The position numbers and the translations under genes were made by a program. Shown in pieces: positions 2,641 to 54,843 of a stretch of DNA of 64,000 nucleotides. The DNA comes from a virus. The notes beneath the pieces were generated by a model. That model saw only the letters and a list, made by a program, of their open reading frames with translations, was not told the DNA's origin and did not search any database. The stretch lies in the IMG/VR virus record IMGVR_UViG_3300010399_000001, positions 1 to 64,000 of that record. The stretch is one strand, 5' to 3'. Numbering within the stretch: position 1 is the first letter of the stretch; every line of letters starts with the position of its first letter.

Positions 2641-3189
2641 TCAGGCCTTCGCAGAGGCCTTCGGCTGAGCGGCCTTGCGCGCGGCCTGCGGCTTGGGCGC
2701 GGGGGTCTCGGCCTGCGCGCTCTGCTCGGCCGGGGCCGCGCTCTGCTCGGCCTGCGCGGTCGGGGCCTTCTCTGCGGCCTCTTCTTCGGCCAGCATGCGG
2801 CTGAGCGTCGGGGGCACATAGTGCGGGCCCGCCAGGCGGAGCACGCCCTCGTCATCGACGCGAAGGAAGCCCATGACGTTATTGGCCTTGGCCCACGCCT
2901 CGTCCTTCGTCGCAACCCACTTACGAACCTCGGCCTTGGTGACGTTCGCACCGCTGCTGGGGTGGGTGATGGAACCCCCGTTACCCGCGCTGCGCTGACC
3001 GCTACCGGTGCGGCGGGTGCTGGCGATCTGGCCCGCCTCAACCCACTTCGACAGGTCAGCCTGCGCCTCGGCGAAGTGGGTGTCGTTCAGGTCGAGCTTG
3101 AAGGCCGTGCCATCGATCACGAGGGTGATCTCGTGCGTCGCCTCGGTGGTCGGGTCGAGGTCGTCGGTCTTGATCGTCTTGAGCGCCAT
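2641..3189 (-). CDS. Lsr2-like nucleoid-associated protein (copy 1)
   Basis: This 182-residue protein is organised like Lsr2, the actinobacterial H-NS analogue that bridges AT-rich DNA and silences foreign genes. Residues 1-60 (ALKTIKTDDLDPTTEATHEI, then VIDGTAFKLDLNDTHF and SKWVEAGQ) match the N-terminal beta-hairpin/helix dimerisation domain. Residues ~75-130 (EVRKWVATKDEAWAK and onward) match the helix-turn-helix DNA-binding half. The usual RGR AT-hook is not evident. The last ~45 residues form an Ala/Pro/Gln/Lys-rich tail. The start (ATG at 3189) follows promoter 3239-3251. A second paralogue lies at 18244-18678. Likely roles are shaping the phage nucleoid or countering host Lsr2 silencing, which is inference. 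Confidence 0.8.
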   Translation of the reverse strand: MALKTIKTDDLDPTTEATHEITLVIDGTAFKLDLNDTHFAEAQADLSKWVEAGQIASTRRTGSGQRSAGNGGSITHPSSGANVTKAEVRKWVATKDEAWAKANNVMGFLRVDDEGVLRLAGPHYVPPTLSRMLAEEEAAEKAPTAQAEQSAAPAEQSAQAETPAPKPQAARKAAQPKASAKA

Positions 3190-4933: not shown

Positions 4934-4976
4934 AGCCTCGCCTCTCTGGTCTGCGCTGCTCTCATGCGCGCGCTGA

Positions 4977-4989
4977 GAGCAGCGTAGCG
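4977..4989 (-). promoter_or_regulatory. Conserved extended -10 promoter
   Basis: It reads CGCTACGCTGCTC on the minus strand. The hairpin GCTCTCAGCGCGCGCATGAGAGC follows in the predicted 5' UTR. Confidence 0.65.
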
Positions 4990-9548: not shown

Positions 9549-9995
9549 CTAGAACGGTTTCCACTCTTCTACTGGCGTCCGAACCCGCCAGCCATGGGAG
9601 CTGGCTATCTTCACCAGCATCTCCAGATCGTCCAGACCAACCTCTACGCGGCCCGGACGCAGCAGGCGGACGAATGAGCTGAGGTTGTCGCCGATCACTA
9701 CTCGCAGATCATCCAGTTTGTCGCCGTCGCGTGCACCGATCGGCATCACCGCGTCGGGATCTGCGATGTACCGTCTACCGGCTTCGGTGATCGTGTAGTA
9801 CGTACGGAGCGGACGCTTGAGGCCAGGCTGATCCTTCTCCTGGCGCTTGGTTATGAATCCCGCGTCCAGCAGGCGCTCGACGGTCGGATACAGCGATCCG
9901 GTTGCCACGTTCAGGGCCCGGCAGATCTCGCGGCCATACTGTTCTCCGTGTACTAGTTGGCCTAGCACCCGCCTTGGGAGCGTGCTTGCGCTCAT
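9549..9995 (-). CDS. PadR-family transcriptional regulator
   Basis: This protein has 148 residues. Residues ~5-75 carry the PadR winged helix (LGQLVHGEQYGREICRALNV, ATGSLYPTVERLLDAGFITK, then RTYYTITEAGRRYI in the wing/third helix). PadR proteins bind promoter DNA as dimers and usually respond to small molecules. The C-terminal ~60 residues are not the usual dimerisation helix and have no obvious ligand site. The ATG at 9995 overlaps the stop of the upstream winged-helix gene (ATGA), so the two regulators are translationally coupled. Confidence 0.85.
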   Translation of the reverse strand: MSASTLPRRVLGQLVHGEQYGREICRALNVATGSLYPTVERLLDAGFITKRQEKDQPGLKRPLRTYYTITEAGRRYIADPDAVMPIGARDGDKLDDLRVVIGDNLSSFVRLLRPGRVEVGLDDLEMLVKIASSHGWRVRTPVEEWKPF

Positions 9996-14493: not shown

Positions 14494-15236
14494 TCCTCTC
14501 CAACCTCCCACTCCAGTTCGCCGATGACCTGGCGCTTGTAGATCTCGCGGATTGCAGTCCAGTGCAGCGTCTGCCGCATCCCGTCGATGGTGACCATGAT
14601 GGCGCTGTGCTTGATCGCGTGCAGGATCATCTGCTTGCGTCCGCCGTTGCGGTACTTCAGCATGATCTCCATGCCGTCCTGCACCTCGGACTCGTCTAGC
14701 GGGATATGGGCGACCAGCTTGGACTTCGCCATCCTCGGCTTGAGGTCGCCCTTCCCATCTACCACCGTCTCGGTGATGAACGTCTGAAACGGTGTGACAT
14801 GACCGGGGAGAAGAACCCAGATCGCGTCGTCTTCAGAGCCGGGCTCGTCGGTGAGCCAGAAGATCCTACGCATATAGCTGACCAGCTCGTCGGTGCTCAG
14901 CATGCGCGGAGCGAGGACCGGAGAGGTCAGCAGGAATCTGGTCTGCGCGCTGCCGACTCCGGAGTATGACAGCAGTGGGTAGATCCGTGCCGGGACGACG
15001 TGCGTCGGAGCGCCCTCGCGATCGGGGCGAATGCAGATGGTCGAAGGCACCAGGGCCTCGCCATCCTCGTAGAACAGGTGGCCGCGTGGCGTCCAGTCCG
15101 TGACCTTCCCCATGGCCGCCGGGATCTGCTTGACCAGCTCGGCCTCGGCGAACTTCTTTGCGTCCGCCTCCCTCAAGCCCTCCGCGAGCTTGCTCATGCC
15201 GTTGAATACCGAGAACTTGTCGTCGGTCGGGTTCAT
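14490..15236 (-). CDS. 248-residue protein, unknown function
   Basis: This is the first gene of the operon 13375-15236, downstream of promoter 15271-15283. It begins MNPTDDKFSVFNGMSKLAEG. The protein is soluble, with long beta-rich stretches (LFYEDGEALVPSTICIRPDR, DAIWVLLPGHVTPFQTFITE) and no obvious catalytic motif. Function is unknown. Confidence 0.7.
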   Translation of the reverse strand: MNPTDDKFSVFNGMSKLAEGLREADAKKFAEAELVKQIPAAMGKVTDWTPRGHLFYEDGEALVPSTICIRPDREGAPTHVVPARIYPLLSYSGVGSAQTRFLLTSPVLAPRMLSTDELVSYMRRIFWLTDEPGSEDDAIWVLLPGHVTPFQTFITETVVDGKGDLKPRMAKSKLVAHIPLDESEVQDGMEIMLKYRNGGRKQMILHAIKHSAIMVTIDGMRQTLHWTAIREIYKRQVIGELEWEVGEE

Positions 15237-15270
15237 CAGCCCTCCAGTCTCTTGCGCGCTCTCTGCGCGC

Positions 15271-15283
15271 GAGTAGCGTAGCA
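15271..15283 (-). promoter_or_regulatory. Conserved extended -10 promoter
   Basis: It reads TGCTACGCTACTC on the minus strand and lies upstream of the operon starting at 15236. Confidence 0.65.
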
Positions 15284-15349
15284 TGCTCCCCTATGCCGGG
15301 ATCACGCTCTCAGAAGCGCTGAGAGCAGCGCTCCCCCATGATCACCAGC

Positions 15350-15380
15350 GCAGCGCTGCCCCGGCGCGGGGCAGCGCTGG
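15350..15380 (-). terminator. Terminator-like hairpin
   Basis: Arms CAGCGCTGCCCC / GGGGCAGCGCTG flank a GCGC-type loop, 30 nt downstream of the gene at 15411-16316. Confidence 0.6.
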
Positions 15381-15410
15381 CAAGCGCTCAGCAGCGCTCT
15401 GCGCGCTCGC

Positions 15411-16316
15411 TCACGGTCGAACGAGCTTGCGCACCAGCTCCCGAGCCAGACCCTCTACCTCATCCGAGACAAGCTCGATGGCCTCCAGCGACTGCGGGAA
15501 GCCGCCGCTCTCGGTCTTGTCGATGGCCTCCAGCCAGGCCACCAGATCGACGAACATCTGCGGCTCGGTGCGCGGCATATCCCGCAGTACGTAGGTACCG
15601 AGCGAGTCCATATAGGTGCGCAGGTCACCTCCTCCGCGCTCCGTGGCGAGCAGGTTGGCGCACAGCACCACGAACACGCCGATCAGCTGACCCCTGCGCA
15701 GGTCGGGATTGGACGGGTCCTCGCCGCCGTGTATGAACTCCTCTTTGACGCTCATCGCGGTCTGGAAGGCGGCGTCCAGCAGGCACTCACCGCCGTCGTC
15801 GTGGCACGCGCGCCACTTGGGCTGCCACTCGGGCGTGATCGCCAGGAACATCGCCCGCGCGGCTTCCACGTCGCCGTAGTTGCTGGCAGCGCCATCGTTG
15901 AGTTCGATCAGGTAGGTGTGATCGCGTTTGCACGGACTGGTCCGCAGCATGGTTTCCCTCGCCTCTGTGAATGCGTATATCCACGCCGGTCTCCCGGAAT
16001 CGGAAAGCCGGTCCCTCTGCGCCAGTTCATCGATGATCGCCGTGGCGATCAGTATTCGCATGGCCTCGCGCCACGCGCGGTACTTGTCCTTCCCCCTCTC
16101 GGTGTTGGTGGGTCTGGTTCTACCGCGCTCCCAGTCGCTGAGGCCGGAGAATGAGACCGTCCTGCCGAGCAGCTGCCTCATGACCTTCGCGACTTCTGTC
16201 AGCGGTATGTTGTGCCGTGCGCGCAGTTGCCTTGCCCAGACGAACTCAGGTTCCGGTTTGCCGGTTGCAACCTTGACGTACTTCCACGTCGATCCGGCCC
16301 TGCTGCGGGGTAGCAT
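15411..16316 (-). CDS. Helix-turn-helix protein, possible XRE-type regulator
   Basis: This protein has 301 residues, from ATG 16316 with AGGAGGTCGG upstream. Residues ~27-70 (ARQLRARHNIPLTEVAKVMR, then FSGLSDWERGRTRP) match an XRE-type DNA-binding domain. The remaining ~230 residues are helical with no recognised ligand or catalytic domain. It directly follows the SARP gene (8-nt gap) and ends that operon. Because two DNA-binding regulators are encoded together, a shared regulatory circuit is likely (inference). Confidence 0.7.
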   Translation of the reverse strand: MLPRSRAGSTWKYVKVATGKPEPEFVWARQLRARHNIPLTEVAKVMRQLLGRTVSFSGLSDWERGRTRPTNTERGKDKYRAWREAMRILIATAIIDELAQRDRLSDSGRPAWIYAFTEARETMLRTSPCKRDHTYLIELNDGAASNYGDVEAARAMFLAITPEWQPKWRACHDDGGECLLDAAFQTAMSVKEEFIHGGEDPSNPDLRRGQLIGVFVVLCANLLATERGGGDLRTYMDSLGTYVLRDMPRTEPQMFVDLVAWLEAIDKTESGGFPQSLEAIELVSDEVEGLARELVRKLVRP

Positions 16317-16324
16317 CCGACCTC

Positions 16325-17095
16325 CTAGATCTCTGCGCCATTGGACATCTTGTCGTTCAGGGCCAGGAACTCCTGGCCCATCTTCAGGCCCATCTCGTCG
16401 ACGATCGCGCATGCCTCGGCGAACGCCTTCACGGCCCGATCGCGCATGCCAGCGCGCCAGTAGGCGGTGACCAGCTTGACCCGCAACGACTCGCGCGTCG
16501 GATCGAGCGCGATCAGTTGCAGCAACTGGGTGATCGCGCCCTCGTTGTCACCGCGAGCAAGCAGAGCGCCGACCAGGGTCTCCTGCATCTCCGAGCGCAC
16601 CTGGGTGTAGTGTTCGGCCGCTGCGGTCAGGACCGGGCCTACGGCCATGCCCATCAGGAACGTGCCACGCCAGAGTGAGAGGGCGTCGGTTGCGGCTCGC
16701 TGGACCTGGGCCCAGTGACCATTGGCCTGGGCGATGCGCGCATGTGCGGCCAGGGTGGCGAACTGCTTGATGTCCGTGTCGGAGTCGCCCAGGTCTAGGC
16801 GGTGACCGCCAGATACCGTCCTGATCATCTCGCGAGGCAGGCCGATCTCCATCAGACCGGTGCGCAGATGATGGATGTAGACCTGCATCGCCGTCCGATA
16901 AGAGGATGGCACCTCATCCGGAGTCCACAGCTCTGGACGAACCTCCTCGCGCGCCACGTTCTCACCGGCTCTAATGGTCAGAAGTCCCAGCACGAGTTGC
17001 TGGTGGCGTGAGGTCGGTTCCCAGACCCGAAGACCGCGCGTCACGCGCATCGGTCCCAGCACCTCGAAACTCGCTCTCGTGTTAACGGTATTCAT
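16325..17095 (-). CDS. SARP-family transcriptional activator
   Basis: This 256-residue protein matches the Streptomyces antibiotic regulatory protein plan. Residues 8-95 form an OmpR-type winged helix (FEVLGPMRVTRGLRVWEPTS, RHQQLVLGLLTIRAGENVAR, MQVYIHHLRTGL). Residues ~105-250 form the bacterial transcriptional activation domain of TPR-like helices (AARAEH-like DALSLWRGTFLMGMAVGPVL, ALLARGDNEGAITQLLQLIA). SARPs bind direct heptameric repeats near -35 and recruit RNA polymerase to secondary-metabolite promoters. The ATG at 17095 follows GGAGTAGAG and lies 2 nt after the preceding gene. A phage copy could redirect host polymerase to phage or host promoters; this is inference. Confidence 0.85.
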   Translation of the reverse strand: MNTVNTRASFEVLGPMRVTRGLRVWEPTSRHQQLVLGLLTIRAGENVAREEVRPELWTPDEVPSSYRTAMQVYIHHLRTGLMEIGLPREMIRTVSGGHRLDLGDSDTDIKQFATLAAHARIAQANGHWAQVQRAATDALSLWRGTFLMGMAVGPVLTAAAEHYTQVRSEMQETLVGALLARGDNEGAITQLLQLIALDPTRESLRVKLVTAYWRAGMRDRAVKAFAEACAIVDEMGLKMGQEFLALNDKMSNGAEI

Positions 17096-17097
17096 CT

Positions 17098-17418
17098 CTA
17101 CTCCGGTAACTCCTTGACCAGCTCGTCGAGTACGCGTGCAAGCAGGGGTGGCATGCCGCGTGCACCCTCGTATAGGTGGCTGCGCGAGCCCTTTCCGGTC
17201 GCTCTCGGTCCGCCCACCTCGACCGTCGTGCACCGCCAGATCGGCTCGTTCGGCGTGCGGGTGAAGGTGGCGTCGATATAGTCCGGTCTGATGGTGATCT
17301 CGGCGTACTCTCCCCGATACGCACTCGGGAAGGTGATCGTCGCCGTACCATCCAGGGGTGCGCGCAAGATCTCGATACTGCGCTTCTCGACATCGCCGAT
17401 GGTTATCTCGTGGCGCAT
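17098..17418 (-). CDS. 106-residue protein, unknown function
   Basis: Its ATG at 17418 overlaps the upstream stop by one nucleotide (TGATG). It begins MRHEITIGDVEKRSIEILRA and continues with beta strands (TATITFPSAYRGEYAEITIR), then a helical C-terminus. It sits between the gene at 17418-18113 and the SARP gene, so all are co-expressed. No family is recognised. Confidence 0.65.
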   Translation of the reverse strand: MRHEITIGDVEKRSIEILRAPLDGTATITFPSAYRGEYAEITIRPDYIDATFTRTPNEPIWRCTTVEVGGPRATGKGSRSHLYEGARGMPPLLARVLDELVKELPE

Positions 17419-18113
17419 CAGATCTCCCGACTTCCGCGAATGCCGTCCCAGACTTCCCGCTCGTAGAGCGTCGCCGATGCAGCCTTGACCAGGCTGTCCC
17501 TTGCGAACGCGAGCCTGGCGTCGATCTCGGCGCTCCACGCGCTGCGCTCCAACTGCTGCGCATCCGGGGTCAGAGTGATCGAGTCGATCAGGCGCATACC
17601 AGCCACGGTTGCGGCGAAGAATGCCGCAGCCCCCAGTGCGGCGTGCACTGGCCCGTTGTCCAGCATCAGCTGGAAGTCGTCGATGGTGTCATCCCCCCCG
17701 TCGCCACCGCCCGACCCGTCCGCGCTCTCGACCAGAAATCTGATCTCGTCGGCGATGCGCTCCTGCCTGCGGCAGAGGTTGTCTAGACCAGCCATGATGA
17801 TCTCGTGCATGCCGTCCGGGCCGAATGCGACGCCGAGTTTGATGGCCCAGAACAGTCCCTGCCCGTAGAACAGGGACGCGCCGCCATCCTCACCCGGCAG
17901 CGAGCCGCAGATCTCGTCTGTAGCCGACATCAGCACGCCAGCCAGGACCGCGCGCCTCTGTGGGCCGGGTAGCGTCAGGTCGCCTTCGACCTTCCGCGCG
18001 GCGAGGCTCGCCACTCCACCGAGCGATCCGAGGGCGAACATGATGTCCTCGTCGCTCGGTACCTCGCTCGGTTCGCTGGAGCCTTCCGGCTCGCTGGTCT
18101 CGTCGGAATCCAT
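17418..18113 (-). CDS. 231-residue helical protein, unknown function
   Basis: This is the first gene of the SARP operon, downstream of promoter 18151-18163. The first ~25 residues are acidic and disordered (DSDETSEPEGSSEPSEVPSD). The rest is Ala/Leu-rich and helical (FALGSLGGVASLAARKVEGD, HAALGAAAFFAATVAGMRLI), some of it hydrophobic enough for membrane contact. No family is recognised. Confidence 0.65.
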   Translation of the reverse strand: MDSDETSEPEGSSEPSEVPSDEDIMFALGSLGGVASLAARKVEGDLTLPGPQRRAVLAGVLMSATDEICGSLPGEDGGASLFYGQGLFWAIKLGVAFGPDGMHEIIMAGLDNLCRRQERIADEIRFLVESADGSGGGDGGDDTIDDFQLMLDNGPVHAALGAAAFFAATVAGMRLIDSITLTPDAQQLERSAWSAEIDARLAFARDSLVKAASATLYEREVWDGIRGSREI

Positions 18114-18150
18114 GACCGCTCCTACTCTCGCGCGCTCTCTGCGCGCATGA

Positions 18151-18163
18151 GAGCAGCGTAGCA
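18151..18163 (-). promoter_or_regulatory. Conserved extended -10 promoter
   Basis: It reads TGCTACGCTGCTC on the minus strand with the hairpin GCTCTCATGCGCGCAGAGAGC. It heads the SARP operon. Confidence 0.7.
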
Positions 18164-18196
18164 TAATTTCCGCATAAGGGCACCGAGAGCGCAGAT

Positions 18197-18226
18197 GGAG
18201 CGGTACCCGCTCACGGGTACCGCTCC
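18197..18226 (-). terminator. Terminator-like hairpin
   Basis: Arms GGAGCGGTACCCG / CGGGTACCGCTCC lie 17 nt downstream of the second Lsr2-like gene. Confidence 0.65.
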
Positions 18227-18243
18227 AGTCTCACCAGGAGTGC

Positions 18244-18678
18244 CTACTCCTGATCGTCGGACTCCTCTTCGGGCTCGCTCTCACCTGCCTTACCCTCCAG
18301 GAGGGCGACCAGGTGATCGCGGTACTCCTCCAGCACGGACGGGCCCACGAAGAAGCCGATCTTCGGATAGCCGTTGTCCTTCGCCCACATCCGCGCGGCA
18401 TCCTTGTCGATCGGAGTGCCGTCCGGCATGGTGATGACGATCTTGCCTGTCGGCTCGGACCCGGAGCGCTTCTTCGGTGCGGTCGTGGTAGCCGCCTTGC
18501 GCTGACGCTCCTTCTTGGCGTCGGCCAGATCGAGGTACTTCTTGATGTCGGTCTGGAAGGTAACGAAGTTTGCATCCCCGAGGTCCAGGTTGCAGCGCGA
18601 ACCATCCACGATGATCGACACCTGATGTGTTGCATCGGTGCCGTCGATGTCGTCTGTGCGCACCACCTTGGTCGCCAT
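18244..18678 (-). CDS. Lsr2-like nucleoid-associated protein (copy 2)
   Basis: This 144-residue protein resembles the copy at 2641-3189 from the start (ATKVVRTDDIDGTDATHQVS, then IIVDGSRCNLDLGDANF). The C-terminal half (DAARMWAKDNGYPKIGFFVG, then VLEEYRDHLVALLEG) matches the Lsr2 DNA-binding helices. The linker is basic (AKKERQRKAATTTAPKKRSG) and the tail is acidic (EEESDDQE). It has its own promoter (18723-18735) and terminator, so it should be expressed independently of copy 1. Two Lsr2-like proteins on one phage may form heterodimers with each other or with host Lsr2. Confidence 0.8.
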   Translation of the reverse strand: MATKVVRTDDIDGTDATHQVSIIVDGSRCNLDLGDANFVTFQTDIKKYLDLADAKKERQRKAATTTAPKKRSGSEPTGKIVITMPDGTPIDKDAARMWAKDNGYPKIGFFVGPSVLEEYRDHLVALLEGKAGESEPEEESDDQE

Positions 18679-48373: not shown

Positions 48374-48651
48374 GCGGTCACCGCGCGAGTGCCGCCCTTG
48401 CGCTCGCTACCGCGCCATATGTGACCGCCAGCTATCCCCTCGAAAGCGCGGTCGGCCTTGGCCCAGGCGTAGCACTCCCTGCGCACTTCGCAACGCGAAC
48501 ACATCTCGCGCGCCTGGACGTACATCGAATCGGTCTTACAACTCGGTACATCGAACATCTCCGGATAGGCGATGCCCGCGCACGCCGCTCTCTCGCGCCA
48601 GTAGGTTCCGGTCATTACTGTCGCAACCTGGTCGCGGGATAGCGCGTGCAT
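48367..48651 (-). CDS. WhiB-family transcriptional regulator
   Basis: This 94-residue protein has the WhiB iron-sulfur pattern: RAACAGIAYPEMFDVPSC, then EMCSRCEVRRECYAWA, giving four Cys (24, 51, 54, 60) for a [4Fe-4S] cluster, and the G.(V/I)AGG..W turn (EGIAGGHIWRG). The basic C-terminus (RKGGTRAVTAC) should contact DNA or sigma. WhiB proteins are confined to actinobacteria and their phages. They bind the principal sigma factor region 4, and phage copies can inhibit host WhiB activity. Confidence 0.9.
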   Translation of the reverse strand: MHALSRDQVATVMTGTYWRERAACAGIAYPEMFDVPSCKTDSMYVQAREMCSRCEVRRECYAWAKADRAFEGIAGGHIWRGSERKGGTRAVTAC

Positions 48652-53178: not shown

Positions 53179-54843
53179 TTAGAAAGGCCAGCTACCATCA
53201 CCGGCAGACAGCGAGGCCAGCATCGTGAACACCTTGTCGGAGAACCCGCCGATCTCGTACCGGTTCGGCTTGCTCGTGTCGATGCTGGATGCACCGTAAC
53301 CCGAGGTGTTGATGCCGAACATCGGCACGCGGTCCGGAATGGCCTCCGACACGCTCATACCGCGCACCTTGCCGATCGCATCGTAGTAGCCGACCGAACC
53401 ACCACCGGGGTAGTGGAACGCCTGCATGTCCGAGACGATGACCACCCGATCATGACCGGAGTAGCTGGCCTTGAGGGCGGCGACCGTCTCGGTACCGTGA
53501 CCGACCGAGCCGACGCGCTTGCTGAATCCCTCGATGTCGCGCAGCAGGCTGCCGCCGTTCTTGAGCGGGTACTGGAAGACTCCGTTGGCGAAGCCGACCA
53601 GGTCCACATTCTTCGGACCGCACTTACGCGCGATCGCCACGCCGATCAGAGCGCCGATATCGACATGACGGATGCTCGACTTGGCCGAGACGTTGCTGTG
53701 CATCGATCCGGAGGTGTCTACCAGGACCAGGGTGCGGCCCGGCAGGTTGGGGATGTTGGCGCATGCGTGACCCAGCGCCTCCTCCAGCGGCTGACCCCAG
53801 CGCAGCGAGTTGAGCGAGCGGTAAGCCGACAGGAACCGGTACGGGAACTGGCGGGACTTGGCCACCTGAGCCGGGTCGCTGATGCGCGAGGCGACCTTCT
53901 CGTAGACCTCCTTGCCAAGCTTGGCCTCATCGAAGTTGCGCAGGTTGCGCAGCAGCGCCATGTAACCCATCGACGGGATGATCGCCTCCCAGGCGATGCG
54001 ATCCATCGGGCCCTGGAGCCAGCCGGACAGCGCCTCCCAGGTGATGCCAGCCTCACGCAGCCGCTCCGCTGCACCGGAAGCCTTGACAAAGCTCCGGCGC
54101 TCAGCGAGGGGGAGGGACAGCAGCTCCTTGCGCTTGCGCAGCATCGTCAGCGACTCGGGGATCTCCTTGCCGCGCCCGTGCCTCTCGTCGATGATGTGCT
54201 CGAACAGGTCCCCCTGCTCGGGCGTGACGAATGCGGCGTTGAACCGGTCGACAGGGTGCACCATCTCGATCACGTCGGCGAAGCGCACACTCTTGTCCGG
54301 CGAGTCGTACTTGGAGTACGAGTACTCGCTGTAGAGGCGGCGCACCGCATCACCGGTACCGCGCTTGATCGAGATCGGGATGCGGTTGCGGCCATAGTTG
54401 GCGATCCAGTAGGCCAGCAGCTCCCCCGGCTCGTCGGCGCGAGAGCACGCCAGGGAGATCAGGCGGCGGTTGATGCCGACCGGCACATCGTTGCGGATAT
54501 CGGTCGGAGCCATGAGCGTGCGGGTACGCACCGCCTCGGCGGCGATGACGATAGACGCGGTGCGCATGTTGGCCTCGTTGCGCAGCCACGGGATGAAGCC
54601 CAGCAGCCACTGCGGGTCCTCGCGCGCAACGGCGGCGGCCAGCTCCTTCAGGCGCTTGGCCTGGTCGCTCTTGGACTCGTAGAACTTGTCCTCGCCCATG
54701 TAGGTGACGGCCAGGATGAACAGGTCGCTCTTGGCGTCACGCTTGAACGCCGCCCCACTCTCGAAGGTGGTGGTCTTCTCCCCCGTGGTGCGCACCGGCC
54801 CGAGGGTCGCAGTGCCACCCGAACGCTTGTTGAATCCAGACAT
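53179..54843 (-). CDS. rsr: Ro60/TROVE-domain RNA-binding protein
   Basis: This 554-residue protein is a Ro60 orthologue. Residues ~35-350 form the helical TROVE repeat ring (LFILAVTYMGEDKFYESKSD, LKELAAAVAREDPQWLLGFI, RTASIVIAAEAVRTRTLMAP). Residues 370-550 are the vWA domain with a complete MIDAS: DTSGS at 376-380, T451 in GTET and D472 in SDMQ. Ro60 binds Y RNAs on the ring's outer surface and 3' ends of misfolded RNAs in its hole; bacterial Rsr feeds RNA to PNPase. Seven Y-RNA-like units lie immediately upstream on the same strand. ATG 54843 is preceded by GAGAGGGG, which is part of a terminator-like hairpin. Confidence 0.92.
   Translation of the reverse strand: MSGFNKRSGGTATLGPVRTTGEKTTTFESGAAFKRDAKSDLFILAVTYMGEDKFYESKSDQAKRLKELAAAVAREDPQWLLGFIPWLRNEANMRTASIVIAAEAVRTRTLMAPTDIRNDVPVGINRRLISLACSRADEPGELLAYWIANYGRNRIPISIKRGTGDAVRRLYSEYSYSKYDSPDKSVRFADVIEMVHPVDRFNAAFVTPEQGDLFEHIIDERHGRGKEIPESLTMLRKRKELLSLPLAERRSFVKASGAAERLREAGITWEALSGWLQGPMDRIAWEAIIPSMGYMALLRNLRNFDEAKLGKEVYEKVASRISDPAQVAKSRQFPYRFLSAYRSLNSLRWGQPLEEALGHACANIPNLPGRTLVLVDTSGSMHSNVSAKSSIRHVDIGALIGVAIARKCGPKNVDLVGFANGVFQYPLKNGGSLLRDIEGFSKRVGSVGHGTETVAALKASYSGHDRVVIVSDMQAFHYPGGGSVGYYDAIGKVRGMSVSEAIPDRVPMFGINTSGYGASSIDTSKPNRYEIGGFSDKVFTMLASLSAGDGSWPF

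What the first reader, a model, noticed from the sequence alone, without database searches (positions are those of the whole stretch)
16325..17095. Phage-encoded SARP activator
It has both the OmpR-type winged helix and the TPR-like activation domain of Streptomyces SARPs, which switch on antibiotic clusters. It is encoded with a helix-turn-helix protein in a late position of its operon. A phage could use it to recruit host polymerase to its own promoters, which lack a -35 box, or to trigger host metabolite genes.
Basis: partly seen in the sequence, partly recalled or inferred. Interest (0 to 1): 0.72.

Follow-up and report, generated by a model that had tools for sequence, protein, structure and literature searches.

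The report
Phage-encoded SARP-type transcription activator
A virus of an actinobacterium carries a complete but very divergent copy of the SARP activator that actinobacteria such as Streptomyces use to switch on antibiotic genes; no other bona fide phage example turned up in the collections searched, and its targets are still unknown.

Summary
The gene at 16325-17095 (-) encodes a 256-aa small SARP. It has an N-terminal OmpR-type winged helix and a C-terminal BTAD activation domain, and its high-confidence predicted fold matches AfsR and EmbR over the full length. The record is a real phage: 115 kb with 124-bp terminal repeats, terminase, portal, tape measure and endolysin. WhiB, Lsr2 and actinophage-like genes point to an actinobacterial host.

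No bona fide phage SARP was found in 50,697 phage records or in BFVD. The two apparent phage hits are most likely mislabelled bacterial chromosome fragments. The best bacterial match found is about 35-36% identical. Base composition is phage-like and the branch is the longest in the SARP tree, so it is a long-term phage resident, not contamination.

The mechanism is only partly supported. The phage has 31 near-identical extended -10 promoters with a weak GTG(C) -35 element; one drives the SARP operon. They carry no SARP-type 11-bp repeats beyond chance, so the SARP is probably not their general activator. Several DNA- and polymerase-contact residues differ from AfsR. The likeliest role is an early-made activator that recruits host RNA polymerase to a small set of other promoters (late phage or host genes). 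Untested.

The parts
16325..17095 (-). SARP gene: small SARP, 256 aa, OmpR-type DNA-binding domain plus BTAD
16796..17074 (-). N-terminal OmpR-type winged-helix domain, residues about 8-100
   Evidence: Trans_reg_C 1.1e-5 at residues 32-96; secondary structure of the model; match to AfsR/EmbR
16847..16900 (-). Recognition helix, residues 66-83 (YRTAMQVYIHHLRTGLME); the positions of AfsR base contacts T88 and R92 are V72 and H76
   Evidence: contacts from PMC10936776
16352..16777 (-). C-terminal BTAD activation domain, residues 107-248
   Evidence: PF03704 E 9.6e-24, 2.2e-25 in genome search; seven helices in the model
18148..18163 (-). Extended -10 promoter of the SARP operon: TG-C-TACGCT-GCTCTCA, -10 hexamer at 18155-18160, inferred start site near 18148
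   Evidence: One of 31 near-identical sites; no sigma-70-consensus promoter or terminator in 15200-18300
17418..18113 (-). First gene of the operon, 231 aa, no known family
17098..17418 (-). Second gene of the operon, 106 aa, no known family; its stop is 2 nt before the SARP start
15411..16316 (-). Fourth gene, weak XRE-type helix-turn-helix, 301 aa; its ribosome site AGGAGGT overlaps the SARP stop codon
   Evidence: HTH_3 E 0.0018, below cut-off; no relatives found in phages, plasmids or 296 actinobacterial genomes; sequence

Best explanation
The gene encodes a small SARP that belongs to the phage's regulatory equipment. It is transcribed from an early-class extended -10 promoter together with two unknown proteins and a probable helix-turn-helix protein. 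By analogy with AfsR, two copies would bind side by side on DNA just upstream of a weak promoter and hold host RNA polymerase there through sigma region 4, the beta flap and alpha-CTD. The DNA sequence read probably differs from AfsR's, because both base-contacting residues are changed. The likeliest targets are a small set of promoters outside the 31-member early class: phage genes such as the structural module, which has none of these promoters, or host genes. Shown: gene, domain architecture, predicted fold, phage context, promoter class, lack of detectable SARP operators at that class. Inferred: DNA binding, polymerase recruitment, targets, timing.
For: Both SARP domains and the full-length fold. 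The architecture is complete with nothing extra, so it is a small SARP. Part of the RNAP interface is kept: R42, D60, E61, S95, E202, I231, D233, E234, M235 and L237 align with AfsR R59, E76, E77, S106, E213, L243, D245, E246, L247 and V249. The neighbours are tightly coupled phage genes, and base composition equals the phage average (GC3 0.794 against 0.80 for the phage and 0.89 for bacterial SARPs). The phage has no detectable sigma region 4 domain, so it presumably uses host polymerase. None of the 31 strong promoter sites lies in the 68-106 kb structural module.
Against: No operator was found anywhere: 11-bp-spaced repeats next to a -10 number 9 against 5 expected by shuffling, most overlapping or low-complexity, and late intergenic gaps share no motif beyond chance. 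Some near-constant contact residues are changed (AfsR D71 to P54, K95 to T79, E176 to Q165, D250 to K238), so DNA binding or activation could be weakened or lost. There are no close relatives with which to show conservation of function.
Confidence: 0.5

Rival explanations
1. MotA-like activator of the phage's own early or middle promoters: the SARP binds upstream of the 31 extended -10 promoters and replaces the missing -35 contact.
For: The promoters have TG-C-TAC[GA][AC]T and only a weak -35 region with GTG in 16 of 31 (3.8 expected). AfsR, the model SARP, works at a promoter with poor -35 and -10 elements (PMC10936776). Identity at lag 11 is the highest of 12 lags (0.319), but lags 13 and 16 are close (0.309, 0.306).
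Against: No excess of 11-bp-spaced heptamers (2 against 1.1 expected, p 0.34) and no position-fixed upstream box in -40 to -19. Extended -10 promoters can work without a -35 (own knowledge). The SARP gene itself sits behind such a promoter, so the class must fire before the protein exists.
Confidence: 0.17
2. Host reprogramming: the SARP acts on host promoters, for example to change specialised metabolism or development during infection.
For: All close relatives are actinobacterial SARPs, some beside biosynthetic genes. Phage infection is known to raise actinorhodin in S. coelicolor (PMC10276819).
Against: The reported induction occurs with phages whose paper does not mention a SARP. The host is unknown here. 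The recognition helix differs from AfsR at both base contacts and from most bacterial SARPs at K95 (T79).
Confidence: 0.2
3. Decoy or antagonist: a SARP derivative that still docks on sigma region 4 or pairs with host SARPs but no longer activates, and so blocks host SARP- or -35-dependent transcription while extended -10 phage promoters continue.
For: Longest branch of the SARP tree (2.13 against a median of 0.31). D71, whose mutation impairs AfsR activation, is proline here, and K95, E176 and D250 are also changed. The phage also encodes a WhiB protein; some WhiB proteins bind sigma region 4 (own knowledge).
Against: Contact positions are not more changed than the rest of the protein (9 of 21 against 44 of 108), so there is no specific sign of lost activation. 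The DNA-binding fold and the nearly invariant R78, W57 and P63 are intact.
Confidence: 0.1
4. Artefact: bacterial DNA joined to a phage contig, or a recent passenger gene without function.
For: It is the only SARP found in a bona fide phage record.
Against: The gene lies inside a polarised phage operon with 2- and 8-nt spacings in a record with 124-bp direct terminal repeats. Its GC and GC3 match the phage (z 0.66 and -0.17). Its reading frame is intact and its fold well predicted.
Confidence: 0.03

Closest known systems
AfsR SARP domain (Streptomyces coelicolor; PDB 8hvr, 8jke, 8k60)
   Same: OmpR-type domain plus BTAD, same fold (TM 0.85, 27% identity); several RNAP-contact positions conserved
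   Different: Phage protein lacks the NOD and TPR modules; base-contact residues T88 and R92 are V72 and H76; D71 is P54; one-residue insertion in the HTH loop; sits in a phage operon
EmbR (Mycobacterium tuberculosis; PDB 2fez, 2ff4)
   Same: Same two-domain fold over 253 columns (TM 0.87-0.89), 25% identity
   Different: EmbR has a C-terminal FHA phosphopeptide domain; the phage protein ends after BTAD
Small cluster-situated SARPs (ActII-4, RedD, DnrI type)
   Same: Domain architecture and length; best bacterial matches found are 35-36% identical
   Different: Not next to biosynthetic genes; far more divergent than any bacterial SARP in the tree
Phage-borne actinobacterial regulators (WhiB, Lsr2)
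   Same: Host-type transcription regulators taken over by actinophages (surveyed in PMC8612146); this phage also has a WhiB and an Lsr2-like protein
   Different: SARP and AfsR are not mentioned in the main text of that survey
T4 MotA (functional analogy only, own knowledge)
   Same: Phage-made DNA-binding protein thought to work through host RNA polymerase, in a phage with extended -10 promoters lacking a -35
   Different: Unrelated fold; no equivalent of a MotA box was found at the promoters here

Membership tests
SARP (AfsR/SARP) family | N-terminal OmpR-type winged-helix DNA-binding domain | tested here: met
   Trans_reg_C E 1.1e-5 (25.8 bits, cut-off 26.2), fold match to AfsR and EmbR
SARP (AfsR/SARP) family | Adjacent bacterial transcriptional activation domain (BTAD, PF03704) | tested here: met
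   84.8 bits against a cut-off of 22.1; full-length domain
SARP (AfsR/SARP) family | Whole-chain fold of solved SARPs | tested here: met
   AlphaFold2 pLDDT 95.5; 8k60_J TM 0.85, 2ff4_B TM 0.89
SARP (AfsR/SARP) family | Residues that contact RNA polymerase and DNA in AfsR | tested here: inconclusive
   About half kept, several near-constant ones changed; same degree of change as the rest of the protein
SARP (AfsR/SARP) family | Operator of heptamer direct repeats with 11-bp period near the -10 | tested here: inconclusive
   No excess at the 31-promoter class, weak overall (9 against 5 expected); the true operator sequence is unknown
SARP (AfsR/SARP) family | Activates transcription, typically of antibiotic clusters | not testable with these tools
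   Needs in vitro transcription or expression in a host
EmbR subfamily | C-terminal FHA domain | tested here: not met
   Protein ends at residue 256 after BTAD; no FHA match
AfsR-type large SARP | C-terminal NOD ATPase and TPR modules | tested here: not met
   Absent; 256 aa only

The most novel reading that the evidence does not exclude
An actinophage has turned a host SARP into a phage transcription switch: an early-made sigma-region-4-docking protein that redirects host RNA polymerase to a phage-specific (late) promoter set, or away from host -35-dependent promoters, in a phage whose early promoters are built without a canonical -35.
Probability: 0.3. Interest if true: 0.75.

Novelty: new member of a known kind. 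Interest (0 to 1): 0.48.

Why it matters
SARPs are the standard on-switches of actinobacterial antibiotic clusters and were known from bacterial chromosomes and plasmids. A complete, long-resident SARP in a phage with no integrase found adds a third actinobacterial regulator type, after WhiB and Lsr2, to the tools phages have taken over. It gives a concrete gene for asking whether phages steer host metabolism or reuse the SARP way of grabbing RNA polymerase for themselves.

Tried and rejected
IMG/VR was searched with the protein, with a three-sequence alignment and with a back-translated ALxLWRG pattern (a tighter version found nothing). No relative encoding BTAD was found; all 8 pattern hits failed a profile search. 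The ALxLWRG pattern finds only about a third of SARPs (15 hits against 47 SARPs in two genomes), so absence from IMG/VR is not shown. A second pattern found nothing in those genomes either and is uninformative. The 11-sequence alignment was too divergent for a scan.

The two 'Bacteriophage sp.' hits in the phage collection (MT835530, MT835531) were rejected as phages. They are 70-75% GC, carry large multi-domain SARPs and genes of LexA, ComEC and cation-ATPase type, and no phage structural genes turned up among the 19 proteins tested.

The idea that the 31 promoters are SARP-controlled was tested by period scans, column conservation and a gapped motif search, and not supported. A search for the promoter motif in other viruses gave 33 scattered single hits, in keeping with chance. 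No shared late-promoter motif was found; some of those gaps probably hold genes that the simple gene caller missed. Folding of the neighbouring helix-turn-helix protein failed (pLDDT 39). No tyrosine integrase or serine recombinase was found. The single-subunit RNA polymerase search had no positive control and says nothing.

Full report
WHAT IS THERE. The ORF at 16325-17095 (-) is intact and 256 aa long. BTAD is unmistakable (E 9.6e-24). The OmpR-type domain is weaker by profile (E 1.1e-5, just below the curated cut-off) but clear in pairwise matches that run through both domains: EmbR residues 6-254 and AfsR residues 26-250 in native numbering. AlphaFold2 on a 41-sequence alignment gives pLDDT 95.5 and pTM 0.89, with the expected strand-helix winged domain followed by seven helices. 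Foldseek puts AfsR and EmbR first at TM 0.85-0.89 and separates them from generic TPR proteins by about nine orders of magnitude in E-value. The protein is therefore a small SARP and not a chance winged helix next to TPRs.

IS IT A PHAGE. The window is the first 64 kb of a 115,046-bp IMG/VR virus record whose ends share a direct repeat of about 124 bp, so it is closed or nearly complete. It has terminase, portal, tape measure, endolysin, RecE and RecT. It also has a WhiB, an Lsr2-like protein and an AAA ATPase whose best phage relatives are in Mycobacterium and Gordonia phages at 44-49%. These point to an actinobacterial host, an inference. No tyrosine integrase or resolvase-type recombinase was found, so a lytic life is likely but not shown.

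IS THE GENE PART OF THE PHAGE. It is the third of four genes with gaps of 2 and 8 nt, and the downstream ribosome site overlaps its stop codon. GC 64.1% and GC3 79.4% match the phage genes (means 62.6% and 80.3%), while 40 bacterial SARPs average 71.8% and 89.1%. In a maximum-likelihood tree its branch is 2.13 changes per column against a median of 0.31. The best match in 396 actinobacterial genomes is 35% identical, and 36% was the highest identity seen elsewhere. This fits old acquisition followed by fast change.

HOW RARE. tblastn against 50,697 phage records at E 0.01 gave only two records. Both look like bacterial chromosome pieces (LexA-type, competence, cation ATPase and large STAND-type SARP genes, 70-75% GC). 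BFVD, a library of predicted viral protein structures, has no match at E 0.001, and PHROGs has no family for it. IMG/VR scans gave no relative, but their sensitivity is about one third at best. A survey of transcription factor domains in actinophages does not mention SARP or AfsR in its main text (PMC8612146), and literature searches found no phage SARP. The literature library is open-access only.

PROMOTERS. Recurrent words in intergenic DNA led to a promoter class T[AG]TGC-TAC[GA][AC]T-[GA]CTC with a likely start A seven bases on. There are 31 core sites in the record, and 27 exact matches in the window against 0.05 expected. Most lie about 40-55 bases before gene starts. They are extended -10 promoters. 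The -35 region has only a weak GTG(C): 16 of 31 against 3.8 expected. The SARP operon uses one of them (18160). The 68-106 kb structural module has none.

SARP OPERATORS. AfsR binds two 11-bp direct repeats at -40 to -19 (PMC10936776). At the 31 promoters, 7-mers repeated at 11 bp are not in excess (2 with at least 6/7 identical against 1.1; p 0.34). No upstream box has a fixed place. Lag-11 identity is the highest of 12 lags but barely. Genome-wide, 9 candidate repeats next to a -10 against 5 expected are mostly low-complexity. The general-activator reading is therefore unlikely but not excluded, because this protein's operator is unknown.

CONTACT RESIDUES. The AfsR structure gives the DNA and RNAP contacts. 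Mapped onto the phage protein, both base contacts differ (T88 to V72, R92 to H76), though V and H also occur in other SARPs at these sites. D71 (beta flap and sigma; D or E in 35 of 40 relatives) is proline, K95 is threonine, E176 is glutamine and D250 is lysine. Kept are R59, E76 (as D), E77, S106, E213, D245, E246, the hydrophobic L243/L247/V249 positions, and the nearly constant W74, P79 and R94. Contact columns have changed no more than other columns (9 of 21 against 44 of 108), so loss of activation is not indicated. Changed DNA specificity is likely.

VERDICT. It is a genuine SARP by architecture and fold, encoded and long kept by an actinophage. It most likely works as an activator through host RNA polymerase on a small, unidentified promoter set. 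The finding is a known kind of protein in a new setting, with a testable but unproven function.

Noticed in passing
window 1581, 2280, 3248, 4150, 4986, 6799, 7974, 9048, 12642, 13311, 15280, 18160, 18732, 21685, 29190 and further sites, mostly -: 31 near-identical extended -10 promoters (T[AG]TGC TAC[GA][AC]T [GA]CTC) with a fixed discriminator CTC and weak GTG(C) at -35; the motif was not found as a repeated class in other viral contigs.
   Followed up: partly
leaders just after the promoters, e.g. window 18120-18155 and 4950-4981: Many transcripts would begin with a GC-rich hairpin or palindrome (GCGCGC-AGAGA-GCGCGC or GCTCTC...GAGAGC); mean best arm 4.9 against 3.7 in shuffles. Could be an operator or an RNA element.
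   Followed up: partly
window 48400-48600 (-): WhiB-family protein (E 3.4e-11, over cut-off), so this phage has WhiB, Lsr2-like and SARP regulators together.
   Followed up: no
window 18244-18678 and 2641-3189 (-): Lsr2-like protein at 18244 (Pfam and PHROG matches); the protein at 2641-3189 starts with a similar stretch and may be a second copy (by eye).
   Followed up: no
window 59456-62960 (+): 7-deazaguanine cluster: queuine tRNA-ribosyltransferase-like protein, QueC-like, QueE-like plus probable QueD and FolE by eye; probably DNA modification by the phage.
   Followed up: no
window 53179-54843 (-): Ro60/TROVE RNA-binding protein with a weak VWA match (PF05731 1.8e-14; phrog_850 2.8e-50).
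   Followed up: no
window 9549-9968 (-): PadR-like regulator by weak NCBIfam match (E 1.2e-7, far below cut-off).
   Followed up: no
L005 and L006 (MT835531, MT835530): Public records labelled Bacteriophage sp. that look like actinobacterial chromosome fragments with large SARPs.
   Followed up: partly
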